64,000 nt of DNA, taken from the NCBI GenBank assembly GCA_001789205.1, contig MFYT01000096.1, forward strand, positions 1-64,000, written 5' to 3'. Under the pieces are notes generated by a model, which saw only the letters and a program-made list of their open reading frames with translations, ran no database searches and was not told the origin of the DNA. Of this stretch, positions 14,702 to 52,419 are shown one piece after another. Every line of letters starts with the position of its first letter. Positions within the stretch are counted from its first letter, which is position 1. This stretch comes from Candidatus Raymondbacteria bacterium RIFOXYA2_FULL_49_16. GTDB lineage: Bacteria > Fibrobacterota > OXYB2-FULL-49-7 > XYB2-FULL-49-35. Both the position numbers and the translations under genes were made by a program.

Positions 14702-14759
14702 GATTCGGGTACTCCTTGCATGACCATGATACTTTTGTTTCATTTGTAGTTCCCCACGC

Positions 14760-20700: not shown

Positions 20701-23027
20701 GTTAATTTATAATTGCCGTTCAGCGGCGGGCCAGTAACGCTATCGAATATGCCTGCGCCATTCCAATGTATGGTCTTGGAGGTATCGGATGCTACGGTAT
20801 AGGTGCCTGCTGAAATCTTTTTGCTGCTGTCATTAGCCTGCGTCCACTGCACAGCAAACGTGCAGTACCCGCCATATCCGTTTATTGTTACATTTGCAGA
20901 TTCAGGAAATACATTCCCGCTGCCTTGGAATAAGGTAACTGTTATATTTCCCGGTTCGACTCCTATGTTATTTTTGAATATCTGGATTTTTCTTACCAGC
21001 TGTATATGGTCTGTTCCAGAGGAATTTGTCTGCACAACAAGGAACAGGTCCTGGCCGTGTGAATAATCGTTAGGATTGAAAGGAACTGACAACCCTTCAA
21101 AATCCTGACTATCATACGCAAGAGTACATGCAGTTTCCAGTCCCGGATTTGCCAGGCTGGTCAGGTCATTTGTATCCGTAACTATGCCGACAATGATTGG
21201 AATGGATTTGCCGTCTATTCGTGTGTCTCCACCATACCCGAGCGTAATCTTAAAATTCAGGTCCGGTCCTGTACTATCAATAATCGCAATACCCGAAATG
21301 GCAGGCTTGTAATCCGCCCTTATAAACTGAAAACCCTCGATGGTATCGCTAAAATTTCCACACCCATCACTTTTTATGCGTCCAAATAATTTATATGTCC
21401 CTGGTTCCAAGAATTTCGCAAGGTTCGTTTCATGTATATCCCCAATAAAAGAAACCGAATCACCGATCCGTTCAGTATTATTCGGCTGAATAAGACTATC
21501 TTTTATCTTCGTCTCTAACAACCCGCTCCCACTATCTACAATGCCATTCGACGAGTCCTTTACTATCCAGTTAAAAAAATAGCCGGCAGGACCTTCTATA
21601 GAATCAGTGACGCTGCCCATCATTGTTCCCGTATTTACATGCGGCGTCCAATCTAATTTTACATACTTTGGGGTGCCAAAGCTCCACCCTGACGTATCAC
21701 CTGCAGGTTGTGTGGGCGCTACGATGGTGCTAAGCTCGGGACGACGGCGAAGGTATTGAGAATAGGTCATGGTGTCAGGTATTGATCGTACGGCACTAAA
21801 AATTGAATCTGTTAAATATACGCTTAACTCCCAATCGCCCCCACCCGCAACACTGTCAATATCAAGAGGGATAGATGCATTAACTTTGTTAAACAATATT
21901 TCACGAGAAAAATTTGTATCATATTCGGCAGAAGGATTCTCATCTCCCCAGAAATGCACTGTATCTCTTCCTGAAAAAACCCTACCACTAAGTCCGTTTA
22001 GAGAAAACGACCAATCCAAAAAAGCAGCTTGCGAAAGCGTATCGCGTTTGCCGTATATTACAGCACCTATAGGAAATGTGAAATACGTACCACTCCCATC
22101 AGGAACCGCACCATCTAAGACATATAGTCGCATGCTATCCACTATCATATTTTCATCATCGGGTATGTTTCGCAAATGCTCTACTCTTAATGAGGCTGTA
22201 GAATTTGTAAACCTAAAAACATCAAAGGGGCCTGTTTCCAAATCATATAAGTCGTTTTTACTTAACTCAATATATCCTAATTTATCTTGTGGCAAATTCT
22301 GAGAACTTGCTACAGTAATATTTCTTGTAACTGGGTCTGGAAAACTTCCTCCTTTTGCAAGAGTTGGCCCCACATCTGTATAAGTTGAATCGTCGCCAGG
22401 AATGCCAAGCGTTTTCCAAATGGTTTTTTCTCTATGTCCTTCCTGACATATTCCAGGACGGACATCTAATGGATCTATTCCCCATATTGTTTTAAAGAAA
22501 GCCTGCCCCTCATCATCAACATCTATCCTAAATAGTCCCAGATCTATATAAAAACCGTTTTCGACTTTCTGAATCCTTAAAAACATATAGCTATAGCCAA
22601 TCGATGGCTTATACAAATTAGCTGCTAAATAATATTCCGTATTGGCTAACATGGTAAACCTAACGGTACCATCTCCTGGAAGATAAAACATGTTACCAGG
22701 ATCTTCTTCTTCATCTAAATTTAAGGGACTATCATCAGAGTTAAAATAAATAATAACATTCTGATTTGACTCGGTACGAAATTGAGCGTATCGAACTATA
22801 TTACTATTATTCACCACCATAGGAGTTATACCATCTACGAAACCGCTGCGGTTGCCTGCAATGATGTTATAATGCTCTGTTCCGGACGATTCTATTTTCA
22901 AATCAACATTTCCATCGGGTAATTGCGCATACAAAACAATAGGGCTTAAAATCATCAATAAAATAAGAGGGCATATAAATGCCTTTAAAACATTTCTTTT
23001 GAGTAAACATTTTGGACATATTCTCAT
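14760..23027 (-). CDS. Giant secreted repetitive beta protein (2755 aa)
   Basis: Function unknown. The N-terminus is a signal peptide (basic MRICPKCLLKR, then a long hydrophobic core ending at LYAQ), and AAAGGA lies about 10 bp upstream of the ATG at 23027. The first half (to about residue 1300) carries Ig/cadherin-like beta repeats with recurring 'DSTG..' and 'ITVTANIKEKD' style strands. The second half (about 1400-2450) is a long series of short beta units built on 'GL.L..V....PNG...L.G', reminiscent of AsmA/TamB-type repeats, though that comparison is only by eye. The last 300 residues are Gly- and aromatic-rich. No catalytic motif and no type IX sorting domain was seen. It is the first gene of a two-gene minus-strand unit. 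Confidence 0.8.
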   Translation of the reverse strand: MRICPKCLLKRNVLKAFICPLILLMILSPIVLYAQLPDGNVDLKIESSGTEHYNIIAGNRSGFVDGITPMVVNNSNIVRYAQFRTESNQNVIIYFNSDDSPLNLDEEEDPGNMFYLPGDGTVRFTMLANTEYYLAANLYKPSIGYSYMFLRIQKVENGFYIDLGLFRIDVDDEGQAFFKTIWGIDPLDVRPGICQEGHREKTIWKTLGIPGDDSTYTDVGPTLAKGGSFPDPVTRNITVASSQNLPQDKLGYIELSKNDLYDLETGPFDVFRFTNSTASLRVEHLRNIPDDENMIVDSMRLYVLDGAVPDGSGTYFTFPIGAVIYGKRDTLSQAAFLDWSFSLNGLSGRVFSGRDTVHFWGDENPSAEYDTNFSREILFNKVNASIPLDIDSVAGGGDWELSVYLTDSIFSAVRSIPDTMTYSQYLRRRPELSTIVAPTQPAGDTSGWSFGTPKYVKLDWTPHVNTGTMMGSVTDSIEGPAGYFFNWIVKDSSNGIVDSGSGLLETKIKDSLIQPNNTERIGDSVSFIGDIHETNLAKFLEPGTYKLFGRIKSDGCGNFSDTIEGFQFIRADYKPAISGIAIIDSTGPDLNFKITLGYGGDTRIDGKSIPIIVGIVTDTNDLTSLANPGLETACTLAYDSQDFEGLSVPFNPNDYSHGQDLFLVVQTNSSGTDHIQLVRKIQIFKNNIGVEPGNITVTLFQGSGNVFPESANVTINGYGGYCTFAVQWTQANDSSKKISAGTYTVASDTSKTIHWNGAGIFDSVTGPPLNGNYKLTVTANIKEKDIVQKSGDFEFSWADPVISGVNFGNQGAIDTSGNLWFGSTPNAVKAKITGPTIYNGLNIWVYSVLSLNGLQPNNLGNPVLTIPKSDAASQTERNIALDTTGVKNGPYTVWLKAAISPGGADSSITFTSQGIRIDTSKIPDFNIIGQAICSTGSQHFKILHALAAGNAPILRYGYVVTNWNNQTVITLQNIGLDTAFNTSLPQSRLISWAPGPNDTNNSYTLDVQTQNILNIPSRLQERSFKFKVDLDAPLVDYSVNTNVAAFTGSNEWNSTRNVQRYKVYLKVDSLRDVSRSVFSIKKTDSSNEESIDDSALFSDTGYGLEYTITDVDTDGNAVLTSYAKDMAGHKRTTLHTLTLDFTEPSMAACTLSHDGSAMTLHWNGNIASDAITTNPSDILVRVYIKETGNGIETRDSLPDYTGNKQNIITHALDNIGSETDSGSVYEIFIHAIDQAGNRKAQGFKINSNGTIDGIAIKNFFYFGNWILSGEIAPDKVGPPANVQIEFNSQCNALGIPSRTMAVPESSFNWIDGQNGSKIITTVDLSDSFLSNVRYNSVPNQVPLKLKGLRLSKVHDKTMMIDTITADAGSYHFKYANVPLYGAVQLGGLQAIDMKGRTSPITSASFSGWTLQAIRDTLTENGIIVSGNLSAFHDSLNSPLVAKRMHLTYSGVNLGIENGVVNPFAVKPDSTAYNVRHAHLDHQNHEIDIDSAYVVFYDGVVPDRSPYGGEGIYSLKAGDLALTNTNQLNTSSSWWTEIISPLSGTGGVTQAKAAFPISIGENEIIAGDLIEFTSDGKGNLLFQTPVYQNGDNPVTQLSGTHKVTSYGIKASIELLNVEYPIGKYGFARIKAGKGIKDLSSGSKITLKENVQLKWSIPNVSGLTGKTTNLDLDSLDIFPVNDVLSDSVSDSVIARYSFDPSRIVRTNFADPVYGIISSWMENASGNMQLYDFTLKDDRIVIDSICFDLPYMKDNAKVCGKNIEIIPEWENKKPGLKLKGRISLDSGTVWLDAAKYGYGLKLHWGGCEINLGDNTQITFPNGASAALYGDFPKLDFSGKGEAFIDSAGTSLDTAAFAINSILITARGLSDFYYETKPLCAKFFNNNLALSGKMFFKVDAGAQAMDAGLKNVTVRVDSFPDIPSLSGRAITLNALNLTGMNPSTFTSKIGLNASDTIGLFAYSIDTAVFSYVDDKFTIAGKNFNFSLTDSFPVNALKGATANFNNLSFNISTGKLDYSDISIDLPNGKVVYTLPYIDGLQDTLTSIKASRDSIGFSGSLVFTQDFAFESLRNTEVKNFNIMIDMGSGAPRLKRADANIHRGERKIELAGLVTIGYKDIIVSYNGDIPNPISRWSFSLGSGITAQLTNNIEIDGLKGRCLTVHAFTLTSGGDVDVMDIGTPLTPFDFYGFDCHGIGNNMEVSIGRDTSGKYYGVLSNVTIHTPYNLPWFGDRNVTIETFKINEDGIVSEFNATTKFSDIPMPFDLNVDTIGVGLAKKGLTAAKENFKVYLFDGSIKTPDLGSTFSPENFNLSGSTLRIDTVAVNFGGVIERTKFSGSIDSIRLGWSGFGVKFEDVRLDKDGVYARTGQLTLPKDISANWLTTSLQLADFHVAKSGVSFIPGITKFEVPLFQGARLVFEDIAFDFKNPALTCHKATAILPDILKGGRVELNDIRLDNDDPYFHVASGGARVELDAKDLHVPIDVIGLGNLKLFMGYTSALGFYYGGEASAVLPGLEGELGAVVEVAEKLDTMPLPFLKKTCMTFKASGLGIPVGATGVYLNGITGCYEQGDWDGTVPVEYAEYCFRSAAMDGRRLQLRLYFTAGGGIAEGEVGFWVNVEKIDIVEFGKLVILGWVEGNECVGVAKNFSDFRGHVKIGIDKWGVEIWGEAWVHLWEAANRAKFTVKAELGAALKKGAAGKVFGVAVPPFSLGPVIVGAEAGDFANNKKGFMLYYDFPVVGEYGVLMQSGIDLVDPGDYPLAE

Positions 23028-28205: not shown

Positions 28206-28226
28206 AGCGGCTATCAACACAACCAG

Positions 28227-28264
28227 AGGGCTGTCTGGTGTAAATACCAGGCAGCCCTTTTCAT
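28227..28264 (+). terminator. Rho-independent terminator
   Basis: A 13-bp stem (AGGGCTGTCTGGT with ACCAGGCAGCCCT, one G-U pair), a 6-nt loop and then TTTTCATTTT. It separates the nuclease unit from the next gene. Confidence 0.8.
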
Positions 28265-31471: not shown

Positions 31472-31512
31472 CCGATTCAGGGGCGGGAGCAATCCTGCCC
31501 CTGGTCGGTTTT
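31472..31512 (+). terminator. GC-rich hairpin with GCAA loop and T-tract
   Basis: The left arm starts CCGA (31472) and the right arm ends TCGG (31508). About 16 bp pair around a GCAA tetraloop (31489-31492), with a TTTT run after. It lies between the clamp-like gene and the M48 gene, right upstream of the latter's ribosome site. It is one of a family of similar hairpins in the element. Confidence 0.6.
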
Positions 31513-36188: not shown

Positions 36189-37070
36189 ATGAGAATTCTT
36201 TTTATTCTAACAATGCTACTTATCATCCAGGGATTGTCTGCGCGTGTCCTGAATGTGCATACATCCACGGGCTCAACTATGTTTGATCTTTCGACCGTGG
36301 ATAGTATTACAATCGATTCCATTCTGTATCCCGGCATGGTAAATGTACCCGCAGGTACGTTCCAGATGGGTTCCACTGCAAACAGTGACGAGCAACCAAT
36401 ACATACCGTCACCATCTCTTCCTTCTGGATGGACACAACCGAGGTAACACAGGCCGATTACCTGTCTGTCACGGGCGTGAATCCTTCCAATTTTACAGGT
36501 GACTCCCTGCGACCGGTGAACGCGCTGACCTGGTACGATGCTGTGCTTTACTGCAACGCTCGTAGTAAGCGCGATGGTAAGGATACGGCATACTTCTATA
36601 GTTCAATAACAGGTACACCTTTCAGCGGTTGTACTGGATTGGCTGACCTTGCTCAAGATACCTCTAAACATAGCTACCGTCTGCCCACCGAGGCTGAATG
36701 GGAATTTTCATGCAGGGCAGGAACCACCACAAGTTATTACTGGGGTGGCGGTAATGCTGACCAATATGCTTGGTATTTCGATAATGCGGGATTTACAACC
36801 CATACGGTTGCCAGCAAAGCAAAAAATGCATTCGGGTTGTATGACATGTGCGGCAATGTGTTTGAGTGGTGCTGGGATTGGAAAGGCAATTATGGAAGCG
36901 GGGCAGAAACAGACCCCACAGGCCCAGCAACAGGTACTTACCGCGTGTTACGTGGTGGCGGTTGGGGCTACCGGGTTGGAGACATAAGTTCTGCGGTACG
37001 CAAATACCCCGGTTCACCAGACCAAGTGGGCAACACTAATTACGGTTTCCGGGTTGTCTGCCGCCCCTGA
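36189..37070 (+). CDS. Secreted formylglycine-enzyme-like (SUMF1) domain protein
   Basis: A 293-aa exported protein: signal peptide MRILFILTMLLIIQGLSA, then a short 'FDLSTVDSITID' segment resembling that of the upstream gene. From about residue 50 it is an FGE-sulfatase fold: MVNVPAGTFQMGS, ISSFWMDTTEVTQADY, RLPTEAEWEFSCRAG, GLYDMCGNVFEWCWD, YRVLRGGGW and NYGFRVVCRP. No lipobox or sorting domain. Enzymatic activity is uncertain; the copper-site cysteines of true FGE are not evident. A terminator follows about 45 bp downstream. Confidence 0.85.
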   Translation: MRILFILTMLLIIQGLSARVLNVHTSTGSTMFDLSTVDSITIDSILYPGMVNVPAGTFQMGSTANSDEQPIHTVTISSFWMDTTEVTQADYLSVTGVNPSNFTGDSLRPVNALTWYDAVLYCNARSKRDGKDTAYFYSSITGTPFSGCTGLADLAQDTSKHSYRLPTEAEWEFSCRAGTTTSYYWGGGNADQYAWYFDNAGFTTHTVASKAKNAFGLYDMCGNVFEWCWDWKGNYGSGAETDPTGPATGTYRVLRGGGWGYRVGDISSAVRKYPGSPDQVGNTNYGFRVVCRP

Positions 37071-40992: not shown

Positions 40993-41013
40993 TATATATG
41001 AAGGGTAAATAAC

Positions 41014-41910
41014 ATGTTCATGTTTCGTTCCACATTTATTATGGAGGGCCTCAAATGGCTAACATTTGTACTCGTTTCCGCAGTTTTGTACTGGAATCTC
41101 AGTACAACATTCCCATTTTTCGGTACAGGAGAAGCAGGAATGCGTCCGTTAGAAAGTTTTAATGGTTTCATCGGACAGACGAAAGCTGTCGAGTCGATTA
41201 TGATTGAACTTTGCGGGTCGGCAAAGGCAGGCAAAGTTCCGGAGGGTTTTCTTCTGACAGGAAATCCAGGTCTTGGAAAAACAGAGATGGCAAAGGCCAT
41301 TGCGATACAAAATAAAACCGCATTTCATACGGTACGATTTGTTACGAGAACCGAGATAGCGAAGGTGTTGTCGAAGGTCGAAAAAGGCGACATCGTTTTT
41401 GTGGATGAAGGACATCGCGTCCGGCATGAATTTTATGAACTGCTTTTCCCATGCATTGAACGGAAAGGGTTGACACTCAGTGATATCTTGGGTAAGGAAA
41501 AAGAGATTGAAGGGATTGATTCAAAAAAGCAAATTCAAGATTTTATTTTTATCATCGCCACAGACCAGCCAGGCAGCCTTCCCAATGCATTGAAAACCAG
41601 ACTGAAGGACCATATTCTTGATTTTTATTCAGAACGTGAACTGCGGACAATCATTTCCAACTGGTTTGACAGTGAGAATAAAAAGGTGCCGATGGATGAG
41701 AGCGGAATGCCAAAGAAAGAAGCTTTGGTTGAATTTACTCCTCATGTATTGACCGTCATTGCAAGGACTGGGAAAGGGAACCCACGTCAAGCTCTGAGGC
41801 ACGCTAAAACCGTTCGTCACGCAGCATTGGCAGCAGGCATGAATTCAATAAACGCACCGTTCTGTAAATCATGTTTAAAAAAGAACGATATTTCTAAAAA
41901 CAGGCCTTGA
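41014..41910 (+). CDS. RuvB-like AAA+ ATPase with membrane segment, N-terminal part
   Basis: A RuvB-family AAA+ domain: SFNGFIGQTKAVE (as in RuvB's F.d.IGQ), Walker A GNPGLGKTE (83-91), Walker B DIVFVDEGHR (Asp131, Glu132), sensor region IATDQPGSLPNALKTRLKDHI, and the NPRQALR arginine motif near 265. A hydrophobic segment at about 13-36 could anchor it in the membrane, unlike true RuvB. The frame stops at 41910 and the family's C-terminal winged helix continues in the next frame, so the gene is split by a +1 shift within 41876-41908. AAGGG lies 8 bp before the start. Confidence 0.8.
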   Translation: MFMFRSTFIMEGLKWLTFVLVSAVLYWNLSTTFPFFGTGEAGMRPLESFNGFIGQTKAVESIMIELCGSAKAGKVPEGFLLTGNPGLGKTEMAKAIAIQNKTAFHTVRFVTRTEIAKVLSKVEKGDIVFVDEGHRVRHEFYELLFPCIERKGLTLSDILGKEKEIEGIDSKKQIQDFIFIIATDQPGSLPNALKTRLKDHILDFYSERELRTIISNWFDSENKKVPMDESGMPKKEALVEFTPHVLTVIARTGKGNPRQALRHAKTVRHAALAAGMNSINAPFCKSCLKKNDISKNRP

Positions 41911-42145
41911 TGCGAATGACGTGAAAATAATGAAAGCGCTATATAACGCTGCGGGTCCTATCAGCATCCGAGAATTAGCCAACATTACCGGCATCGACGA
42001 GGATAGTATATCTCAATACTACGAACCATACCTGAACCGGATTAATTTTATTCACGTATCCAGCAAAGGCAGATACTTAACGTCAAGAGGCAATATTTTC
42101 ATGGAGGACAAGTATGCATATCGTAAAAGTAGGACGGCCGCTTAA
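41911..42145 (+). pseudogene. C-terminal winged-helix part of the RuvB-like gene, out of frame
   Basis: Continues the RuvB-like protein in the +1 frame. GLDANDVKIMKALYNAAGPIS, upstream and through the ATG at 41921, corresponds to RuvB's GLDxxDxxIL. Then come IRELANITGIDEDSISQYYEPYLNRINFIHVSSKGRYLTSRG, equal in pattern to the RuvB_C DNA-binding winged helix. The usable window for the shift contains an A6 run (41877-41882) and an A5 run (41896-41900). It is a sequencing error, a mutation or programmed slippage; two coupled subunits are also possible. Confidence 0.7.
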
Positions 42146-43094
42146 AAAGTTAATTGCCGCTGCTTACAAGGCAAGACAGCCTGTTTTGCTCGTTGGCAAA
42201 CATGGTCTGGGGAAAAGTGAAATTTTCAAGGAGGTGGCGGCAGAACTGAAGATCGAAGCCAAAGTAATAGACCTGTCAATTATTGAGCCTGTTGATTTGG
42301 CAGGATTACCAATGATCGACCAGATAGAAAAGGTAATGAAATACGCACAACCCGCAAGCCTACCGAGTGACAAGAATGGGAAAGGGATTATCCTTTTTGA
42401 AGAATTGAATCGCGTGCCCAAGGATCTGCAGGCCGCATGCCTGCAGATCTGCACTGAAAGAAAATTTAACAGTTATGAGTTACCTGACGGGTGGATCCCC
42501 TGCGCCGCAGTCAACCCCGTCACGGATGAGTATGACACAGACCAGCTCGATGCGGCGCTTATGAGCAGGTTCATGGTAGTATATATTGAGGCGGATGCTG
42601 ATGAATGGATTATGTGGGCAAGGGCCAACAAGGTGCATGAAGTCGTAATTGCATACCTTGAAAAGGACCGAAAAGCAATTAACGACCCAGACCTGAGCCC
42701 CCGAACTCTTTTTTATACATCGCGGTTCATTCTTTCGAATCAGAAAATAGATGATGATACCTTATTATCGGGCATTGTTGGCCTGGCGGGTGAAAAGCAT
42801 GGGTCTGCAATCTTTCGAATGCTCAAAAAGAAGGACATCGACCACCTTACGATAAAAGATATCCTAACCAATCCTACAAAAAGCGCTGATACTATTATAA
42901 TGATAGTAGAGAAACGCAGAACCGATAGGCTGTCAGACATAATGTCCATAATCTTGCAGTATGTGAAGAGTGGCAAAAGTCCCTCCAAGGACCAACATGT
43001 GAACCTCTTAGCTTTTATTGCCCTCTTGCCGGAACAGAAACAAAAAGAAATAAGGAGCTTTTGCAAAGGATGCGGATTTCAAACGAAGAAATAG
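42114..43094 (+). CDS. MoxR-like AAA+ ATPase
   Basis: A 326-aa MoxR-type ATPase: Walker A GKHGLGKSE (28-36), the MoxR patch DLAGLPMID, a Walker-B-like IILFEELNR (Glu96-Glu97, the usual Asp changed to Phe-Glu), sensor-1 AAVNP, and the DAALMSRF arginine-finger region. MoxR ATPases usually chaperone or remodel a target together with a VWA protein, whose gene follows at once. It overlaps the winged-helix gene by 32 bp. A GGAGG site precedes the ATG. Confidence 0.8.
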   Translation: MHIVKVGRPLKKLIAAAYKARQPVLLVGKHGLGKSEIFKEVAAELKIEAKVIDLSIIEPVDLAGLPMIDQIEKVMKYAQPASLPSDKNGKGIILFEELNRVPKDLQAACLQICTERKFNSYELPDGWIPCAAVNPVTDEYDTDQLDAALMSRFMVVYIEADADEWIMWARANKVHEVVIAYLEKDRKAINDPDLSPRTLFYTSRFILSNQKIDDDTLLSGIVGLAGEKHGSAIFRMLKKKDIDHLTIKDILTNPTKSADTIIMIVEKRRTDRLSDIMSIILQYVKSGKSPSKDQHVNLLAFIALLPEQKQKEIRSFCKGCGFQTKK

Positions 43095-44299
43095 AAGCCC
43101 AGGGCCATATAAGCACGGCCTTGATGCGTCTGGGACAAAAACATCAGTTCCATACCGCTCTTGCTAAGCATTGGGGTATCCATGCCGGCAAGGCCAGGTC
43201 AATCAGGGCCGAATTCAGCGATGAGGTGGAGATCATTTTTAGCCCAGGATATGTGAATAATGCTAAAAATATCGGGGTCATCGAGAAACGTTTATTGGCA
43301 GTATTAAAATCTATTATCAAGAAAGCATATGAAGAAAAAGACGAGGAGGAGGATAATGAGGAGAAGGATGATGGGGAGGACGGGGATGATGGAGAGGATG
43401 GGGAGAATGAGGCGATAGAATGCGAAAAGAAGAGCGAAGGTGGGCAGGAAAAAGATCCGCCAGATCCATCCAAGGCCGGGAATAGTCAGTCACTGCAAAC
43501 AAAAGCGAGTCAACAGGGTGACCAGCCAGACCCACAGAAAGAACGGGGGGATGAAGAACAACCATCCCCGCAGAACGCCGATATCGACGGCAATGGGCCA
43601 TCCCAGGGGAATCTGACGGAAGCTCTTAAGAATAAAATAAAAACTATTGCCAAATTATGCGCCATGGAGAACCCTGATGCTTCAGACATTCCCGCAGAGC
43701 TCCTGGGGGCAGACGATGATCAAAAATCGCAGGTAGGGAATATAGCAGGGAATGCGGCCGAAGTGGTAATCTCTGATGGCAATAGCGGGCTTCAATGGAA
43801 CAGAATTCTGAAAAACTACTTTGGTTCGGTACGAGAGAAGACTCGGACCAGAATGTATCCGAACAGACGCATGCCCGAGCTACTGGGTATCGTCCCTGGG
43901 AATAAACGGAGCTTTAGACGGCCGCGTATCATGATCGTCATCGACACTTCCGGGTCGATCTCCTCGGAGGATTTGACAATTATCGGCCGCGAGTGCAAGT
44001 ATTTCCGCCGTACGTCCGAGGTATGCATCGTCGAATGCGATTATGAAATTCATCGGATATACGATTTCAAGGGAAAGATCAAAGACGTTGTCGGACGAGG
44101 GGGAACTTCATTCTTACCGCCACTTGATGAAAAGTTCTTAGCAAAAAGGCGGGCTGAACTCGTAATTTATTTTACTGATGGTGAGGGACCGGCGCCTGAA
44201 AAGCCGCCGATAGTACCGATCATTTGGTGTCTTTTACGCCGAGATTCCATATCACCAGCGAAATATGGGCGGGTAGTTCGGTACGACAAGGAAATATAA
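43070..44299 (+). CDS. CobT-like VWA protein with acidic linker (409 aa)
   Basis: The start at ATG 43070 is chosen; an upstream TTG at 43061 is possible. About residues 80-200 are a very acidic, Gln/Pro/Gly-rich linker (EEDNEEKDDGEDGDD...), as in CobT/ViaA-type proteins. The C-terminal VWA domain has an intact MIDAS: DTSGSIS from Asp292, GRGGTSFLPP, and FTDGEG. No HExxH is visible in the N-terminal part, so it is not the metallopeptidase-fused form. It overlaps the MoxR gene by 25 bp, making a MoxR-VWA pair. The next gene follows after a hairpin. Confidence 0.8.
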   Translation: MRISNEEIEAQGHISTALMRLGQKHQFHTALAKHWGIHAGKARSIRAEFSDEVEIIFSPGYVNNAKNIGVIEKRLLAVLKSIIKKAYEEKDEEEDNEEKDDGEDGDDGEDGENEAIECEKKSEGGQEKDPPDPSKAGNSQSLQTKASQQGDQPDPQKERGDEEQPSPQNADIDGNGPSQGNLTEALKNKIKTIAKLCAMENPDASDIPAELLGADDDQKSQVGNIAGNAAEVVISDGNSGLQWNRILKNYFGSVREKTRTRMYPNRRMPELLGIVPGNKRSFRRPRIMIVIDTSGSISSEDLTIIGRECKYFRRTSEVCIVECDYEIHRIYDFKGKIKDVVGRGGTSFLPPLDEKFLAKRRAELVIYFTDGEGPAPEKPPIVPIIWCLLRRDSISPAKYGRVVRYDKEI

Positions 44300-44320
44300 G
44301 AGGTGGCCCAAACATCAACC

Positions 44321-44352
44321 GGCGCCAGGCCTGAAAATCCTGGCGCCATTTT
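44321..44352 (+). terminator. Hairpin between the VWA gene and its neighbour
   Basis: GGCGCCAGG (44321-44329) pairs perfectly with CCTGGCGCC (44339-44347), then ATTTT. The next ribosome site AAAGGAG follows at once, so it may be an attenuator or RNA-processing site rather than an end. Confidence 0.55.
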
Positions 44353-44364
44353 AAAGGAGAAAAA

Positions 44365-45132
44365 ATGGGGCTTTATTTGATATTACCCGGCGACAGATGG
44401 GGTAAAGTCATCAGGAAAGGTGAGACAGTGAGGAATGGCAATACGTGCATTCCCGTGTTTGATATTAAGGATGATGTTTTTGAAGGTTGCGTACCAAAAG
44501 TAGCTAAGGATATCATGGGCCTTGAAAGAGATGTGCTGCTGCTGGAAATCGTGAACCCGCCGGATATTGCCTACTACCCTATAAAACGCAAGGACGACTA
44601 TAATATCCTGGGGTTGGTACAAAATTTTGTCCCGGCGTCTGACATGAAACTCGTGTTTGCCTTCGACGTCACAGGCGGCGCACTGTGCACCATTCGCGAC
44701 GAGAAGCAGTGGCATGAGGAGTGGGAACAAAAGAACGATGCCATATTGCGCGGAAAGGTCCTTTGGACCGCTGAAGAATGGGTAGAGATCTTCAAAATCC
44801 AGGAAACCTTCGATCCCAAGAACCTGATAAACGAACAACGCCTGTACTTCATAGAACGCTACGGCAAAATGACCGGACTCAGCCATCATCTTCGATACGG
44901 GAAAATCCAGCAGTTTCTTGTTGAACATAAAGAGCAGCTTGAACAAGCTGGGCTGATGGTCATGGGTGCCAATAAGGGCTTAGCACTCAGGGCGGTACTG
45001 AAAGTACTTTGTGGAATGGAACACAACCATGACACCGGACGAAAGGGGCTTGGCAGATACACGTTCAGCTATGATGAGTTCATCAAGAAATTTTACGAAA
45101 TCCCAGAGGAAGAAAGGAAAACGAAGGCATAA
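44365..45132 (+). CDS. Unknown 255-aa protein of the AAA+/VWA cassette
   Basis: No family recognised. AAAGGAG precedes the ATG. The N-terminal 110 residues are beta-rich (GLYLILPGDRWGKVIRKGETVRNG), and the rest is helical with a basic patch (GLSHHLRYGKIQQFLVEHKEQLEQAG). It lies in the same direction as the RuvB-like/MoxR/VWA genes, separated only by a hairpin, so it may be the cassette's substrate or effector. It is bordered downstream by an 11-bp hairpin. Confidence 0.65.
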   Translation: MGLYLILPGDRWGKVIRKGETVRNGNTCIPVFDIKDDVFEGCVPKVAKDIMGLERDVLLLEIVNPPDIAYYPIKRKDDYNILGLVQNFVPASDMKLVFAFDVTGGALCTIRDEKQWHEEWEQKNDAILRGKVLWTAEEWVEIFKIQETFDPKNLINEQRLYFIERYGKMTGLSHHLRYGKIQQFLVEHKEQLEQAGLMVMGANKGLALRAVLKVLCGMEHNHDTGRKGLGRYTFSYDEFIKKFYEIPEEERKTKA

Positions 45133-45138
45133 TCCAAT

Positions 45139-45171
45139 GGCGGGGCCCACCAATAGTTGATGGGTCCCGCC
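45139..45171 (+). terminator. 11-bp GC-rich hairpin
   Basis: GGCGGGGCCCA (45139-45149) pairs with TGGGTCCCGCC (45161-45171), one G-U pair. No T-tract follows. Same size class as the other intergenic hairpins. Confidence 0.5.
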
Positions 45172-45688
45172 TCCTTCAAACACTTATGGACAGACTTGAT
45201 AGTATGTGGATGCCACCACCCCACCTTGCCTTCGGCAGGGTGGCCTGGGTCAACGACCGCACCTTCCTATCCGTTCACCCCCCGCTCTTGGGATCCGGCA
45301 GGGCTCCCTGGAACGCAATGGTCGCCGATTCTGCATCCCTGCGGTGGGTACTCGTATGGCTTTTACCAGCAACGAACGCCTGGAACCGCCGTTTCCCTGT
45401 CATTTTAAAGGATTCCCGGTCCAAAAACATTGATAAAGCATGCAAGACGGCACTATTCCGGGTCTTCTCAAGGTTCCAGACAGCTTCCGAGAGCCCCACA
45501 GCAAGCGATCCAGTACCGGCATCGGCGCCCATTGGCCGATTACCATATCCCGGGCCTGCGGGAGTTGAATCGATTGAGGTAAATATTTGCTTGGTAAACA
45601 ATGTATGATTTCATATATGTTTTTTTCTTATATAACCGTATTGTTTGTAGCCTGGGCAAAGACACTCAACCCACAAGGAACCTGAATT
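45172..45688. other. GC-rich gap without a convincing gene
   Basis: About 520 bp. Frames exist on both strands (45186-45608 plus, 45275-45601 minus), but neither has a ribosome site or a recognisable product. A 10-bp hairpin CCACCTTGCC/GGCAGGGTGG with a 3-nt loop lies at 45221-45243. GC content is clearly higher than in the AT-rich genes on either side. It could be a structured RNA or a decayed gene. Confidence 0.35.
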
Positions 45689-46990
45689 ATGGAAACGTTG
45701 GATACTAAAGGCACCATACTAAATAACCCTGTCAACGTAGTAGGCGCGGGAAGATGCCAACCAGCTTTCCGGCCCCTCAGCAAGCGTACCAAATGGGCCG
45801 TACAAATTGTTTGGCAGTTAGTTCGGACAAATCCGGAGTTCATTCAATTATGCAAAGAATTGCCGCATGATAAGACTGCTATCGATAAAATAGATCAGCT
45901 ATTTAATACTGATTTTAATTCCATCAACCGCGATTACCTTGAAATGAACACGGTGGTGCAAAAACCATTCAAAAAGTTGATAGCTGAAGATCCGACATCG
46001 ACAAGTAAAATTTGTAAACAGCGGATCACAGCGTTCCTCCCCCGGCCCTGGCGATATATTAACCCGCGCACGTCAGTATTCGGAAAAGGCTGCCATCCGT
46101 CCCAGGTACTCTATTGTATCATCGAAACCATTGAAACATCATCAATGAACAGCTTGCCAATGTATGAGAAAATCGATTTTATTAAAATTGAATTGGTAAA
46201 ATACTGGAAATTCAACAAAGAGCGACTTTGGCTCCCCCACATTCCCTTTACCGATGATAAGGAAAACATTATAAAGATTAAAAAGGCAAGGTTCGGCGAC
46301 GTGGAAAAACTTAAAAAGCATTACCCCGAAATATATGGCCAGATTTTTAATTGTAGCAAGGGAAACAACTACCTCGGCGTTTTTCCCATCTGTAAGAAAA
46401 CGGGCGAAAATATTCACTTGAAGTCTTACGGAACCGCTGACAAATCAGCCCACATCTCCCCAAGACTGTATCTGGACATCGTTTCCTATATATTTTCCGA
46501 TACGGATATCCCTTCTGCTGGAAGGATATCGAATATGGATGAGCGTGTTATACCCTCTTACTTCTTCACCGACCCACCGGTCCCATCAGGTTTTACCTTC
46601 AAAGAGTCATATGAGACGACAATAGACACAGCTATTCGAGGGTTTCTTAAGAAACTTGCACCTGAGACTCAATGGGACAGAAAACTTTCTTTTGCCTTAA
46701 AAAACAGGCTAATGTCACAACTCAAAAGAAAAGCGCTGCAGATAAAGCCGGTTCAAGGAGATAAAAGAAAATGGAATCCTTCACGGATTTTTAAAAGCTC
46801 CAATAGTACAACCCAGATTGCAACGTCTTCATCGTTAGTCGCAGAAATCAATCAGGCTGGTGAAATATTTATCGGGGACAAAATTGGATTTGTCTATGCA
46901 TTTTTATATACCGACAGCCAAATACCAGAAAAACTTAACTTTTTTCATCGCATAAACAAGGTATCGCCCAAACTCTTCTCCAGCCCGTGA
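45689..46990 (+). CDS. Unknown 433-aa element protein
   Basis: No family recognised. ACAAGGAA precedes the ATG. Soluble, Lys-rich, mixed alpha/beta, no signal or membrane segment. Features: a helical N-terminal half (KRTKWAVQIVWQLVRTNPEF), a Trp/Pro patch (FLPRPWRYINPRT), and a basic C-terminal stretch (LKNRLMSQLKRKALQIKP). AT-rich codon use, similar to the following primase gene. Position immediately upstream of the primase-helicase suggests a replication or control role. Confidence 0.65.
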   Translation: METLDTKGTILNNPVNVVGAGRCQPAFRPLSKRTKWAVQIVWQLVRTNPEFIQLCKELPHDKTAIDKIDQLFNTDFNSINRDYLEMNTVVQKPFKKLIAEDPTSTSKICKQRITAFLPRPWRYINPRTSVFGKGCHPSQVLYCIIETIETSSMNSLPMYEKIDFIKIELVKYWKFNKERLWLPHIPFTDDKENIIKIKKARFGDVEKLKKHYPEIYGQIFNCSKGNNYLGVFPICKKTGENIHLKSYGTADKSAHISPRLYLDIVSYIFSDTDIPSAGRISNMDERVIPSYFFTDPPVPSGFTFKESYETTIDTAIRGFLKKLAPETQWDRKLSFALKNRLMSQLKRKALQIKPVQGDKRKWNPSRIFKSSNSTTQIATSSSLVAEINQAGEIFIGDKIGFVYAFLYTDSQIPEKLNFFHRINKVSPKLFSSP

Positions 46991-47029
46991 CAAACCCTTC
47001 GTAAGTCGTTAATTTTTTAATAAATCAAA

Positions 47030-47066
47030 GGTATAGACGGGATCATTATCCGTATATACCAATTTT
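47030..47066 (+). terminator. Palindromic hairpin with T-tract
   Basis: Near-perfect 31-bp palindrome (47030-47060; arms GGTATA.ACGGGAT and ATCCGT.TATACC), then AATTTTT. It probably ends the 433-aa gene's transcript. Confidence 0.6.
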
Positions 47067-47193
47067 TAGCGTTTGTGTAAACCTTCCACAAGTCCTTATT
47101 TATCATCATATTTTCTTCCGCTCTGTAACACAATCCCCTATCGATTACCCCTTGATTTGAATCCTTAAAGCCTTATGTTATTAATAAGATTTT

Positions 47194-47275
47194 AACGGAC
47201 CAATCGGCAATAAATATTTCCGGCTCTGATGGAGTTCTTGGTCCGTTCTCCATCGGGGCCGTTCTATTTGAGGTA
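47194..47275 (+). promoter_or_regulatory. Alternative-folding leader of the primase-helicase gene
   Basis: Stem 1: AACGGACCAA (47194-47203) with TTGGTCCGTT (47238-47247), 10 bp perfect. Stem 2: 13 bp between 47222-47234 and 47248-47260 (GGCTCTGATGGAG with CTCCATCGGGGCC, two G-U pairs). Stem 1's right arm forms the loop of stem 2 and touches stem 2's right arm, so both cannot form fully together. The gene's GAGG site lies about 9 bp beyond. Confidence 0.5.
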
Positions 47276-47278
47276 ATT

Positions 47279-49909
47279 ATGGACAATATTGAAAGAAAGT
47301 TCCTCTTCGCTCGTTTCGACGAAGAGTCAACCGGCCGCTTCCACGAGTTCTACGCTCTCTTTGGCGCGCGGCAGAGCGCCCCTGGCAGGAACTTCCATTG
47401 TTGGAACGGCGCGGCTCATGCCCATGGTGATGCGGATCCCAGTCTTTCCATCGATAATGAACGAGGGCTCTATAAATGCCATGCGTGTGGTATCAAGGGC
47501 AACTTCAATACATTTTACAAAGAGCAAGTGGCGAATGGCCCATTCGATAAATGGGGTGGCTCTTATATAAAATGTATGATGGATCTACTCAATATTGCGG
47601 ACGTTAGCGCCGGTGAATTGGACAAGGCTAAGATAGCGTACAAAAAACTCACCAATAGGCCTGTCGCGACTAGTCCTGTGGCCGCAGCGCCCGGACCGGC
47701 AACGAACCAAAAAGAAAAGAAAACAGCTGTACCACAAAATCCATCGATTAATGAAGGCTTTGTTGCGGAGCTGTTGAATAATGAAGAAAAGGTAAAGTAC
47801 CTCTACAATAAACGTCACATAACGAAAGAGATCATTATAAAATACGGCCTGGGTTTTTCATTTCAATGGGACGGTTTTACCTTCCCTATGTACAACCAAA
47901 AGGGCGAACTCGTCAATATCAAGGTCTATAGGCCGTGGATGCCAAAAGCCAAAAAGTGGCGTTGCATGTTCAAAGACAACCCCGTTGCTCCCAGCCCTCT
48001 CAGTTCTTTGACGGCTCAGAAGATTTATCTCCACGAGGGAGAACCCGATGCATATTGTTCCCTCGCCTTTGGTATAAATGGTTTTACCACCGGGGCCGCC
48101 GGGGGAATGAAACATATAAAGGAACAATTCGGCAATCAATTTGAGAAAATATTCAAAGGCAAAGAAATAATTATTGTCCCAGACAGGGACAAAACTGGAA
48201 TTGCGGCTGGAATGGCGGCCGCCGCAAGTCTGCATCTTATCGCAAATCTGGTCAAAATCATCAATTTAGACAAGTCAGAAAAAAATCCGGACGGACTTGA
48301 TCCTACATTATTGAATGATAAAGGCAAGCGAGTAGAAAAAGATTTCACTGATTTTCTGCAAAAGAATGGGATGGATGAAACTGCCAAATCTAAATTTCTC
48401 GACCTGGAGAATATAACAGAGCTTTGGAATCCACCAAGTGACTGCAATGAAAAAGAAGCAAAAAAGAAAAAACTATTGCCCGTTGAAATTGCCGAAGACT
48501 ACTTGAAAGCCCGTGCATACAACATTGAAGACAATTATTATTTAAGATATTATAATTATCACTTTGTCTTTTTCGATGGAAAGGTCTATCAGGTTCTTGA
48601 TGACACAGATGTTGAGAAAGACATATATCAATTTCTCCAGACATACATACAATACCGCGCTTATGCCCGACCCCAGATCGTAAAAGCCATTATCGAGAAT
48701 ATTTCAGCGCTTGCATACATTCCACATAACGTTGAGCAACCAGCCTGGATTAGCGACAATAAAATAGCAGGGCAGTTTGTTGTTGTTGAAAATGGCATCG
48801 TTAATATTACGGCTTTGATTGGCAAAAAAAGAGAAGACGAGATTCTTTTACGCCATACACGATATTTTTTTTCCACGGTAAAACTCCCATTTGAATATAT
48901 ACCCGCTGCAACTTGCCCGAAATTCAAAGAATTTATCGAGAAAGTTCTTCCTGATCCAAAAGTGCGCCAGTTGGTGTTGGAGTTTGTGGCATCTCTTTTC
49001 ATCCCAGAATTCCCTCATGAACACTTCTTGATTCTTATCGGGGAAGGCGCCAATGGGAAAAGTGTCTTCTTGAATATTACGATCGCCTTGATTGGCAAGG
49101 ACAACGTTTCATCCGTGCCGTTGGAATCATTTTCACAAACACATACGCTGGCGAACACGTTGGGTAAGTTGGCAAATATCGCCTTTGAAATGGGCTATAT
49201 CGATAAAGGAATCGAGGGCATCTTGAAAGCGTACGTTTCGCGCGAACCAATAATGATCAATCAGAAGTACAAACCGGTATATTCGGCAAGGCCGACAGCG
49301 CGCTTGATCTTCGCGACAAACAATGCTCCTCAATTCAGCGACCGTTCTTCTGGAATAGGACGTCGCCTATTGATGGCTGAGTTTAATCAAACCATTCCCG
49401 ATGAAGAGCAGGACAAATTGTTGGCCGAAAAAATCATTAAATCAGAACTGCCGGGAATATTTAATCTGCTCATGGAAAATCTGGCTGCGGTGTTGAAACG
49501 TGGACGCTTTGAGGAACCAGACGCGTGCAAAAAAGCCAAAGAGGCCCTGCGCACTGAAAATGATCCGGTCCGGTTGTTCTTATCGACGGAATGTGAATTC
49601 GACAAAGATTCGTTAACGAACTGCTCAGGCCTCTATGCATCCTATGTCACATATGCCCAGAAAACAAAACAAGAAATCGTTAAAAGCACCGTTTTTGGCA
49701 AGACCCTGCATAAAACTTTCCCCTTCATTGAACGGATCCAGCGCCGAGAGGGTGACTCGTCTAAATGGTATTATAAGGGCATTAAAATCATTGGTGACAG
49801 CCAGTTATGTGGCACAACCTATAGTTTTCCCGAGAAGGTTGTAACCGATGTAACCAACGAACTGGATAAAATTAAAAATGTTTATTATGCTCTTCGGAAG
49901 GATACATAG
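47279..49909 (+). CDS. D5-type primase-helicase (876 aa)
   Basis: Replication protein of the element, P4-alpha/D5-like. Order: zinc-binding CHC2-type region near the start (Cys41, His47/His49, Cys67, Cys70; FHCWNGAAHAHGD ... YKCHACGIKG); TOPRIM domain at about 250-320 (YLHEGEPDAYC, IIIVPDRDKTG); D5 N-terminal region; superfamily 3 helicase with Walker A GEGANGKS (588-595), a motif-B-like IAFEMG, motif C LIFATNNAP, and the GIGRRLL arginine finger. It combines initiator/primase and helicase roles. The zinc His replaces a usual Cys. It follows an alternative-folding leader. Confidence 0.9.
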   Translation: MDNIERKFLFARFDEESTGRFHEFYALFGARQSAPGRNFHCWNGAAHAHGDADPSLSIDNERGLYKCHACGIKGNFNTFYKEQVANGPFDKWGGSYIKCMMDLLNIADVSAGELDKAKIAYKKLTNRPVATSPVAAAPGPATNQKEKKTAVPQNPSINEGFVAELLNNEEKVKYLYNKRHITKEIIIKYGLGFSFQWDGFTFPMYNQKGELVNIKVYRPWMPKAKKWRCMFKDNPVAPSPLSSLTAQKIYLHEGEPDAYCSLAFGINGFTTGAAGGMKHIKEQFGNQFEKIFKGKEIIIVPDRDKTGIAAGMAAAASLHLIANLVKIINLDKSEKNPDGLDPTLLNDKGKRVEKDFTDFLQKNGMDETAKSKFLDLENITELWNPPSDCNEKEAKKKKLLPVEIAEDYLKARAYNIEDNYYLRYYNYHFVFFDGKVYQVLDDTDVEKDIYQFLQTYIQYRAYARPQIVKAIIENISALAYIPHNVEQPAWISDNKIAGQFVVVENGIVNITALIGKKREDEILLRHTRYFFSTVKLPFEYIPAATCPKFKEFIEKVLPDPKVRQLVLEFVASLFIPEFPHEHFLILIGEGANGKSVFLNITIALIGKDNVSSVPLESFSQTHTLANTLGKLANIAFEMGYIDKGIEGILKAYVSREPIMINQKYKPVYSARPTARLIFATNNAPQFSDRSSGIGRRLLMAEFNQTIPDEEQDKLLAEKIIKSELPGIFNLLMENLAAVLKRGRFEEPDACKKAKEALRTENDPVRLFLSTECEFDKDSLTNCSGLYASYVTYAQKTKQEIVKSTVFGKTLHKTFPFIERIQRREGDSSKWYYKGIKIIGDSQLCGTTYSFPEKVVTDVTNELDKIKNVYYALRKDT

Positions 49910-49993
49910 TGCAAAATATAGAATTCTTTAAAATTTAGCTTTATAGAAGATAAGGGGTTTGTTGGTTACACTGGTTACAGAAGGAGGTTCTCT

Positions 49994-50575
49994 ATGCGAT
50001 TTTATGAAGCCAGACTTCATGGCCCAACACCAGTCGATGACGGTTACGGCCTTGATCCCATTCGGACCGAAGCGGCCATGAAAATCTTCCATCAGATGCC
50101 AGGTTTTATCCTTAGTTATAACCCCTCCTTGCCGCCGCGGCGCCGGATCACAGCGCCTCATTTCTGGCAGCCCGGGGACCCAACAATCATCCGCGCGTTA
50201 ACCGTTGCGCCGCCATCAAGGCTGCCGGCCGGGGTTGTGCGGGTGATTATTCCGAGCCTTCCCTACAATGCGAAAATCTATAACTTCGACACTCATAGGC
50301 TGGAATACACCCATGTGGATTTTTCAATTGAGAAGTGCATGGCTTATTGGATATCCAGGTCAGAGTGGTCAACGTGCCGCGAAGAATATCTGTCCGTGCC
50401 TGAATGCAATATTGAGCGTGCGTTTGCAGTCATTGGAATCACCGGTGATGGAATTGTCGCTGGGAAAGGGGTTTGGTTACCAAAGTTCGACAGCCAGGAC
50501 CCGGCCTGGGTGGACGATGTGCTTGTGGGCGGTCAATGTATAGATCAGGTCTTTCGGCCATATTCCGAAGGATAA
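49994..50575 (+). CDS. Unknown 193-aa element protein
   Basis: No family recognised. AAGGAGG precedes the ATG. A soluble protein with a Pro-rich region (SLPPRRRITAPHFWQPGDP) and several Trp residues. The beta-rich C-terminal part (FAVIGITGDGIVAGKGVWLPKF) resembles small-molecule-binding folds only loosely. It lies between the primase-helicase and the Xis-like gene. Confidence 0.65.
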   Translation: MRFYEARLHGPTPVDDGYGLDPIRTEAAMKIFHQMPGFILSYNPSLPPRRRITAPHFWQPGDPTIIRALTVAPPSRLPAGVVRVIIPSLPYNAKIYNFDTHRLEYTHVDFSIEKCMAYWISRSEWSTCREEYLSVPECNIERAFAVIGITGDGIVAGKGVWLPKFDSQDPAWVDDVLVGGQCIDQVFRPYSEG

Positions 50576-50852
50576 CCACTGTGGCGGACAATGAACATTT
50601 GCATTTTTTAAGTTATTTACTTAGATTTACTGGTATCACTACTTTGTAGGAATAGTTTCCACGTCTCGTCCGCCAGCGGCGATGACGGCAAAACAACAGG
50701 CAATAAGTCCTGTTTACGCAAGTCCGGCTGGAGACGGTCGGCAATGTCCCGTGTTACATGGGACTTCTCAAAAACGGCAGCGCACGATTTATGCTGCGCT
50801 GCACAGTGCTGGCATAGGGTAAGGTCTGTCAAAGCCTGCCCTGGAGAAGTCC

Positions 50853-51224
50853 ATGCAATCCACCCCAAGCCCCATCCCCCGCCCCAGGTCTGCCTTTCCT
50901 GAACCAGCAGACACCCCACCTCAAAGCCCGACGCCACAAAACAACAGCGCCACCAACCAAGATATCTGGATCAAACAAGAGAAGGCACCATTACCATCCG
51001 GAGCCAAAAGAAAAAATATTGTCTCTCTGCCGGAACTATTAACGGTCACAGAAACCGCAGACTATTTAAAAGTCCCGGTGCAAACAATCTATTCTTGGAT
51101 ACACCGAAAACGTTTGCCTGCATTTAAAATCGGTTGCGGGGTTCGCATTCGGGCTGACTTCCTGGCTGCTAGACTCCAGGGTGAACAAGGAAAAGTGTTG
51201 AATGACACCATCACAAGCAATTAG
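50853..51224 (+). CDS. Excisionase-like HTH protein
   Basis: A 123-aa protein. Residues 1-56 are a Pro/Ser/Gln-rich linker. Residues about 60-108 form a MerR-type HTH_17 domain: LLTVTETADYLKVPVQTIYSWIHRKRLPAFKIGCGVRI. Its position just before the integrase is that of an excisionase (directionality factor). The long disordered front is unusual for Xis proteins. The start is not certain; an internal start nearer residue 50 is possible. Confidence 0.75.
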   Translation: MQSTPSPIPRPRSAFPEPADTPPQSPTPQNNSATNQDIWIKQEKAPLPSGAKRKNIVSLPELLTVTETADYLKVPVQTIYSWIHRKRLPAFKIGCGVRIRADFLAARLQGEQGKVLNDTITSN

Positions 51225-51268
51225 ATTTTCCGGAAGAGATCAAACTCCATGCCGAAAGGAGGCCTGAA

Positions 51269-52396
51269 ATGGCTACACTCCGATGGCGTGGACGCTCTTT
51301 ATGGCTGGATCTGCCCAACAAGGGACAACGGTTAAGGCAAAGCATCATTCGCCGACTCTCCGATGCTCCCAGCGAAATAAAACGCTGTGAACAATTGGGG
51401 CGCGAAGTTTTGTCCAAGCGGATAGTACAGCTTAAAGAGGAAACGTTCTTTGACATTAAGAAACCAAAGTACAATCCGAAATTCTGGCGGCTTGTCGGAC
51501 TGTATTGGCACTACCACTTGCGGATGAAGAGATCGGCAAAGCAGGAACGGTCAAAACTGAACGTCTTGTTGAAAGAATTCGGCAGGGAATACGCGGTGAA
51601 GATTACTCGGGACCGGGTCAGGGCATGGGTAAACAAATCCCGAAGCAAGCAATCAAGCAGGGGCACGCCCTACAACGTGGGAACAATCAACCGTTGGCTG
51701 GCATACCTGAAGGCTGTATATTACAATGCCTGTGACGAAGACTGCGATGAGGGCAAGCGGCTTGAACGGAATCCGGCGGCACGCATAGACCCAATTGAAG
51801 GCGAGACGATCCGGCAACACCTGGTAAACGAGTACGATTTCAGGCGCATGTACAATGCCGCGAACCCATGGTTCCGGCCTCTCCTGCTGGCTGCATGGGA
51901 AACGGGCTGCAGGCCCGAGGAGCTCTACAAGACCACTTGGTCGAACGTGGACATGATCGAAAGGGTGATTTATCTTCCCACCAACATTACCAAAACCGGA
52001 GAGGCACGTATCATACCCATGAGTGAGCGGCTGTTTGATGAAATAAAATCACTTCCTAAAAAAAGTGAATATGCTTTCACGAACCACATAGGCGGCCGAT
52101 ACAGGGATGTCAGGAACGAGGTCCAGAGAATCCGGGAAAGAACAGGGAATAATTTTTGGTTCCGGGATATGCGGAAAGGATTCGTGACAAGGAAAGTTTC
52201 AGAAGGTCACGATTATTTTGCCATCATGAGCATTACCGGACACCGTACAACGGCAACGTTCAAGCGGTATAATATCGGGACCCTTGCCCAAGCCAGAAAA
52301 GTGGTGGATTCAAGGCCAAAAAGTGACGGGAATAAAAATGATCTGTCACAAATCTGTCACACAGCGGAAACGAGGGCTGTAAGCAATTATCAATAA
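51269..52396 (+). CDS. int: Tyrosine-recombinase integrase
   Basis: A 375-aa phage-type integrase. The N-terminal part is a core-binding region with a SAM-like helical domain (about 75-165). The catalytic set: Arg215 (ETGCRPEE), Lys near 243 (ITKTGEARIIPM), box II RDMRKG at 299-304 where the usual His is Arg299 and Arg302 is kept, His325 (ITGHRTTATFKRY) and Tyr334 as nucleophile. The His to Arg change at box II is a known variant in some integrases. The gene ends 23 bp before a broken tRNA-Leu gene, the presumed attachment site. Confidence 0.9.
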   Translation: MATLRWRGRSLWLDLPNKGQRLRQSIIRRLSDAPSEIKRCEQLGREVLSKRIVQLKEETFFDIKKPKYNPKFWRLVGLYWHYHLRMKRSAKQERSKLNVLLKEFGREYAVKITRDRVRAWVNKSRSKQSSRGTPYNVGTINRWLAYLKAVYYNACDEDCDEGKRLERNPAARIDPIEGETIRQHLVNEYDFRRMYNAANPWFRPLLLAAWETGCRPEELYKTTWSNVDMIERVIYLPTNITKTGEARIIPMSERLFDEIKSLPKKSEYAFTNHIGGRYRDVRNEVQRIRERTGNNFWFRDMRKGFVTRKVSEGHDYFAIMSITGHRTTATFKRYNIGTLAQARKVVDSRPKSDGNKNDLSQICHTAETRAVSNYQ

Positions 52397-52419
52397 GCAA
52401 GATAGTTTTTGCGCTGGTT

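What the first reader, a model, noticed from the sequence alone, without database searches (positions are those of the whole stretch)
47194..47275. Mutually exclusive stems in the leader of the primase-helicase gene
A 10-bp perfect stem and a 13-bp stem share the same right-hand segment: the loop of stem 2 is exactly the right arm of stem 1, and the two right arms are adjacent. They cannot both form fully. The ribosome site lies right behind. This is the form of an RNA switch that could tie primase synthesis to a signal, or of an origin with fold-back structure.
Basis: seen in the sequence. Interest (0 to 1): 0.6.

Follow-up and report, generated by a model that had tools for sequence, protein, structure and literature searches.

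The report
Interleaved hairpins before a primase gene
Just ahead of the DNA-copying (primase-helicase) gene of an integrated mobile element, the messenger RNA can fold into a strong hairpin whose loop also matches an upstream segment; this probably dampens primase production, but it is an unproven variation on kinds of control already known from plasmids and phages.

Summary
The stems are real: L1 47194-47203 pairs R1 47238-47247 (10 bp, perfect); L2 47221-47234 pairs R2 47248-47261 (14 bp, two G-U). The wording needs correcting: the arms do not overlap. Their order L1-L2-R1-R2 is interleaved, the topology of an H-type pseudoknot, so the conflict is steric and kinetic, not a shared segment. 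Such a pair is expected about 0.005 times per 64 kb of shuffled sequence and is unique in 804 kb sampled; given stem 2, stem 1 arises by chance about once in 10,000. Stem 2 is more stable (-25.4 vs -11.8 kcal/mol) and belongs to a recurrent class: hairpins directly before Shine-Dalgarno sites, enriched in this element (4/17 starts vs 6/216, p=0.003) and in related elements (4/30 vs 0/59, p=0.011). The closest usable relative (primase 31-35% identical) has a hairpin at the same place but no stem 1. No promoter, above-threshold terminator score, antisense promoter, pre-emptor, iteron or Rfam match supports a specific switch. No close relatives were found, so covariation could not be tested. Most likely a cis-acting leader hairpin or pseudoknot that lowers primase expression.

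The parts
47194..47203 (+). L1, left arm of stem 1 (AACGGACCAA)
47221..47234 (+). L2, left arm of stem 2 (CGGCTCTGATGGAG), lies inside the loop of stem 1
47238..47247 (+). R1, right arm of stem 1 (TTGGTCCGTT), occupies 10 of the 13 loop bases of stem 2
47248..47261 (+). R2, right arm of stem 2 (CTCCATCGGGGCCG), directly adjacent to R1
47262..47269 (+). TTCTATTT, T-rich stretch behind stem 2 (weak terminator-like tail)
   Evidence: terminator score d = -5.8, below threshold
47270..47273 (+). Shine-Dalgarno sequence GAGG, 5 nt before the ATG
   Evidence: read from sequence
47279..49909 (+). P4-family (D5/DUF5906) primase-helicase gene, 876 aa
   Evidence: Pfam, PHROGs and NCBIfam TIGR01613 matches
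47030..47060 (.). separate weak hairpin with T-rich flanks on both sides, 40 nt behind the upstream gene; possibly its terminator
   Evidence: (I7); flanks read

Best explanation
A cis-acting structured RNA leader of the primase-helicase mRNA. As RNA polymerase passes, L1:R1 can close first around a small three-way junction. When R2 emerges, the stronger stem 2 (L2:R2) forms, either displacing stem 1 or keeping 6-7 of its pairs as a strained H-type pseudoknot. Stem 2, followed by UUCUAUUU and then the SD, acts as a partial terminator or expression damper of the kind this element family repeatedly places directly before SD sites; stem 1 delays or modulates its closure. The net effect is low, buffered primase synthesis. 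Shown: the arms, their order, their rarity, the enrichment of hairpins before SD sites. Computed: folding order and energies. Inferred: transcription through the leader, termination or damping, and any regulatory role of stem 1. No ligand is proposed.
For: Arms and order. Stem 2 -25.4 kcal/mol vs stem 1 -11.8 alone, or about -19 to -22 with inner hairpins; stem 1 is the predicted fold while the transcript ends at about 47246-47258 (47180 start; 47246-47255 with a 47100 start), stem 2 afterwards. Rough pseudoknot energies -28 to -31 kcal/mol with 6-7 stem-1 pairs kept, sterics not modelled. Leader folds better than shuffles, z -2.4. Rarity: 0.0053 expected per 64 kb, conditional 9e-5. Hairpins ending 8-34 nt before SD-bearing starts: element 4/17 vs rest of window and genome sample 6/216 (p=0.003); related G154 elements 4/30 vs 0/59 (p=0.011). 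The homologous primase gene of G154:C55 has an 8-bp G+C hairpin at the same place, sharing CGGCYC...GGGCCG-N12-TAATTATG; whole-leader similarity ranks 2nd of 555 leaders, hairpin part alone p about 0.01.
Against: Terminator score is below threshold (d = -5.8), and the scanner, whose loop limit of 8 excludes this hairpin, reports none on this strand. The relative's hairpin has no U-run (d = -37), so if the two hairpins are homologous, termination is not the shared function. No promoter above background between the upstream gene and stem 1. Stem 1 is absent in both relatives. No close relatives, so no covariation. The enrichment test has small counts and thresholds chosen after seeing the case.
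Confidence: 0.4

Rival explanations
1. Translational operator: the interleaved stems form a true pseudoknot 5' of the SD that is bound by a replication protein of the element (autogenous control, as with T4 gp32) or is needed for or against ribosome loading (as with ColIb-P9 repZ).
For: Interleaved topology; position at the upstream edge of the ribosome footprint; rough pseudoknot energy near or below that of stem 2 alone; the relative's hairpin lacks a U-run, which fits an RNA operator better than a terminator. The T4 gp32 operator is a pseudoknot 5' of the SD and diverges fast among T4-like phages (PMC535899).
Against: Linkers of 3 and 0 nt leave almost no room for 10 + 14 bp to coexist in full; SD and start codon are not sequestered; no pseudoknot in the relatives; no cognate protein identified.
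Confidence: 0.22
2. Ordinary intergenic hairpin: stem 2 is one of the generic hairpins of this element (partial terminator or mRNA-end stabiliser of upstream transcripts), and the L1:R1 complementarity is coincidence or relic without function.
For: Hairpins before SD sites recur in the element; stem 2 dominates every full-length fold; stem 1 has no counterpart in relatives; the finding was picked from a large amount of sequence, which inflates its rarity.
Against: A 10-bp perfect match of the loop to the 87 nt upstream has chance 9e-5 given stem 2 and the loop of 13 nt is exceptionally long in the class.
Confidence: 0.25
3. DNA-level site: AACGGACCAA / TTGGTCCGTT (and the near copy GGGCCGTT) are operator or origin half-sites for a repressor or for the primase-helicase itself, in an A+T-rich intergenic region.
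For: Region is 36.8% G+C against 45.7% for 41000-52400; three near copies of GGNCCGTT within 70 bp; P4-type primase-helicases act at origins (established knowledge).
Against: No iterons or tandem arrays, the motif is otherwise at chance level in the window, no GC-skew inflection; stem 2 contains G-U pairs, which as DNA are mismatches.
Confidence: 0.08
4. Antisense-RNA-driven attenuator as in pT181/pIP501, with a countertranscript pairing to the leader and favouring stem 2.
For: Hairpin with T-rich tail just 5' of a replication gene, the arrangement described for those plasmids (PMC5703833).
Against: No upstream pre-emptor for L2 beyond chance (best -10.8, shuffle mean -10.7 kcal/mol); best minus-strand promoter-like site is reached by 20% of random 300-nt stretches; U-run weak.
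Confidence: 0.05

Closest known systems
T4 gene 32 autogenous operator (RNA pseudoknot 5' of the Shine-Dalgarno site)
   Same: Interleaved stems in the leader of a replication gene of a mobile genome, just upstream of the SD; poor conservation among relatives (PMC535899)
   Different: The T4 pseudoknot spans about 28 nt with short stems and lies about 40 nt or more from the AUG; here 10 + 14 bp over 68 nt ending 17 nt before the ATG; no binding protein known
ColIb-P9 repZ / IncB and IncL/M repA pseudoknot control
   Same: Loop-to-distant-segment pairing upstream of the RBS of a replication gene (review PMC8383071)
   Different: There the pseudoknot activates translation and is blocked by antisense Inc RNA and coupled to a leader peptide (own knowledge for the last point); no antisense promoter or SD-bearing leader peptide seen here
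pT181 / pIP501 rep leader attenuator
   Same: Terminator-like hairpin immediately 5' of the replication gene's start (PMC5703833)
   Different: There a pre-emptor pairs with the 5' arm of the terminator and an antisense RNA decides; here the upstream segment pairs with the loop, and no pre-emptor or antisense promoter was found
Intercistronic terminator-like hairpins of phage and mobile-element operons
   Same: Recurrent hairpin plus short U-rich stretch directly before the next SD
   Different: Loop of 13 nt with a 10-bp upstream partner

Membership tests
Intrinsic terminator / attenuator | G+C-rich stem followed by a U-run with terminator score above threshold | tested here: not met
   d = -5.8 (threshold 0); tail TTCTATTT
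pT181/pIP501-type attenuator | upstream pre-emptor complementary to the 5' arm of the terminator | tested here: not met
   best L2 partner -10.8 kcal/mol, shuffle mean -10.7
pT181/pIP501-type attenuator | countertranscript promoter on the opposite strand | tested here: inconclusive
   best site 8.7, reached by 20% of random stretches; promoter consensus of this host unknown
H-type pseudoknot leader (gp32 or repZ-like) | interleaved stems 5' of the SD | tested here: met
H-type pseudoknot leader (gp32 or repZ-like) | both stems coexist in the folded RNA | not testable with these tools
   only a rough energy without sterics; needs probing
H-type pseudoknot leader (gp32 or repZ-like) | conservation or covariation of both stems in relatives | tested here: not met
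   stem 1 absent in L034 and L035; relatives at 31-36% identity, so a weak test
Known riboswitch or RNA family | match to an Rfam model | tested here: not met
   no match in the window at gathering thresholds
Replication origin with iterons | tandem or dispersed iterons near the replication gene | tested here: not met

The most novel reading that the evidence does not exclude
A new kind of leader switch in which the long loop of a terminator-like hairpin, rather than one of its arms, is captured by an upstream segment, so that a pseudoknot controls when the hairpin closes and thereby the primase level of a mobile element from a deep-branching (probably Fibrobacterota) lineage.
Probability: 0.12. 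Interest if true: 0.6.

Novelty: new member of a known kind. Interest (0 to 1): 0.3.

Why it matters
If the interleaved stems control primase synthesis, this would add RNA-level control of replication genes for mobile elements of a little-studied phylum, and the broader pattern (hairpins placed directly before Shine-Dalgarno sites in this element family but rarely in the host) would be a testable regulatory habit of these elements. If not, it is an ordinary structured leader.

Tried and rejected
Homologues of the leader DNA: none in 167 genomes of the phylum; the best match, to Fibrobacter-like genomes (L040), lies in an unrelated coding region and is taken as chance. Close primase relatives: none in genome contigs, IMG/VR, phages or plasmids beyond about 30%; in the window's own class no other genome is held. 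Rfam: nothing. Ribosome-mediated attenuation: a possible 6-codon ORF 47175-47195 (MLLIRF) ends at L1 but has no SD; rejected. Iteron or ori reading: no repeats, motif at chance. Upstream partners for L2 or R2: chance level. Origin of the paired arms as a repeated motif family elsewhere in the window: not seen. Upstream hairpins of distant D5 primases in viral contigs were folded, but many starts were guessed wrongly and the loci are too distant; not used. Literature searches for a hairpin-before-RBS class in phages gave nothing usable.

Full report
What is there. The 288-nt gap between an unassigned gene (45689-46990) and the P4-family primase-helicase gene (47279-49909; TIGR01613, DUF5906, D5_N) holds two stems just before the Shine-Dalgarno site. 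Stem 1 is L1 47194-47203 with R1 47238-47247, ten perfect pairs. Stem 2 is L2 47221-47234 with R2 47248-47261, fourteen pairs of which two are G-U. The tail TTCTATTT, the SD GAGG (47270-47273) and the ATG at 47279 follow.

Correction to the observation. The arms are disjoint. Their order is L1, L2, R1, R2, so the stems interleave as in an H-type pseudoknot, with 17 nt between L1 and L2, 3 nt between L2 and R1, and none between R1 and R2. With such short linkers, full coexistence of both stems is sterically doubtful, but a partial pseudoknot is not: a crude sum (stacking plus a Dirks-Pierce-like penalty, no sterics) gives about -28 to -31 kcal/mol with six or seven stem-1 pairs, against about -25.5 for stem 2 alone. 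A real sequence competition, L1 with the end of R2 (47256-47263), is only -7.1 kcal/mol.

Is it more than chance. In 60 dinucleotide shuffles of 804 kb (window plus 40 stretches of the same genome), interleaved stems this long occur 0.067 times per 804 kb, or 0.0053 per 64 kb; in the real 804 kb this is the only case at these lengths. Keeping stem 2 and shuffling the loop and the upstream 87 nt, a 10-bp match appears in 9 of 100,000 trials. Thresholds were taken from the case itself, so the true surprise is smaller.

Folding. Stem 2 dominates: -25.4 kcal/mol against -11.8 for stem 1 (about -19 to -22 with inner hairpins that make a three-way junction). For growing transcripts that start at 47180, stem 1 is the predicted fold from about 47246 to 47258 and stem 2 thereafter; with a start at 47100 the switch comes a few bases earlier. 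The 111-nt leader folds better than its shuffles, z -2.4. The SD is not held by either stem.

A recurring class. Among gene starts with an SD and at least 45 nt of free upstream sequence, a G+C-containing hairpin of 8 or more pairs ending 8-34 nt before the start is found in 4 of 17 cases in this element (28289, 31530, 44365, 47279) but in 6 of 216 elsewhere in the window and in the genome sample (p=0.003). The related elements of genome G154 show 4 of 30 against 0 of 59 (p=0.011) (first seen). Stem 2 is thus one of a set. Most members have a short U-rich stretch before the SD, but several, stem 2 included (d = -5.8), score below the intrinsic-terminator threshold, whereas other hairpins of these elements score above it (37115: +10.0; L101 8253: +31.1).

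Relatives. The window genome is the only one held of its class. In 167 genomes of its phylum (probably Fibrobacterota, judged from Fibrobacter-type family TIGR02171 and from the genome sizes; an inference) only G154 carries close primases: C55 (31-35% identical, gene split in two overlapping frames) and C18 (35%). The C55 element also shares three other genes with the window element (24584, 26191, 26669). Its primase leader has the hairpin TCCGGCCC-TTGAAACT-GGGCCGGA at the same distance from the start, and shares CGGCYC...GGGCCG-N12-TAATTATG with the window. Whole-leader similarity ranks second of 555 leaders; the part without the SD has p about 0.01: suggestive of common descent, not proof. 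It has no stem 1 and no U-run. The C18 primase follows a small HTH frame without a leader; that operon itself begins with a short hairpin before its SD. No homologue of the leader DNA was found. So the base of stem 2 may be conserved and stem 1 is not, but the relatives are too distant for a covariation test.

Mechanism. I favour a cis-acting leader hairpin that lowers primase expression, mostly by partial termination or by slowing the transcript's use, with stem 1 as a transient competitor or pseudoknot partner. The rival with the best precedent is a translational operator such as the T4 gene 32 pseudoknot (PMC535899) or the repZ pseudoknot of ColIb-P9 (reviewed in PMC8383071). A pT181/pIP501-type attenuator (PMC5703833) fits the position of the hairpin but fails the pre-emptor test, and no antisense promoter stands out. 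A DNA operator or origin has no repeat or skew support. A plain hairpin with an accidental stem 1 remains quite possible. The promoter that makes the leader is unknown: the best candidate, TTGATT-16-TATGTT ending at 47179, is at the background median.

Verdict. Real, non-random and correctly located, but mis-described as mutually exclusive; a likely structured leader of a known kind, function unproven.

Noticed in passing
28225-28260, 31477-31504, 44321-44347: Other strong hairpins directly before SD sites in the same element; the class is enriched in this element and in related elements but rare in the host.
   Followed up: partly
31530: The M48-type peptidase gene listed from 31434 more likely starts at 31530, behind a strong SD (TATGGAGG) and a 12-bp hairpin.
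   Followed up: partly
L035 8763-11274 (G154:C55): The primase-helicase homologue is split into two frames (231 + 607 aa) overlapping by 8 nt: zinc-finger half and TOPRIM/helicase half; a real gene split, a frameshift or an assembly error.
   Followed up: no
24584-52396 vs G154:C55: The window element has a distant relative in another class of the phylum that shares at least four genes in similar order (24584, 26191, 26669, primase).
   Followed up: partly
36189-37070: FGE-sulfatase / C-type-lectin-fold protein inside the element, the fold often used by diversity-generating retroelement targets; no reverse transcriptase was looked for.
   Followed up: no
47030-47060: Imperfect inverted repeat with T-rich flanks on both strands between the upstream gene and the leader, possibly a bidirectional terminator.
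   Followed up: partly
68-14794 and 14760-23027: Two giant open reading frames on the minus strand (4908 and 2755 aa) directly beside the element.
   Followed up: no
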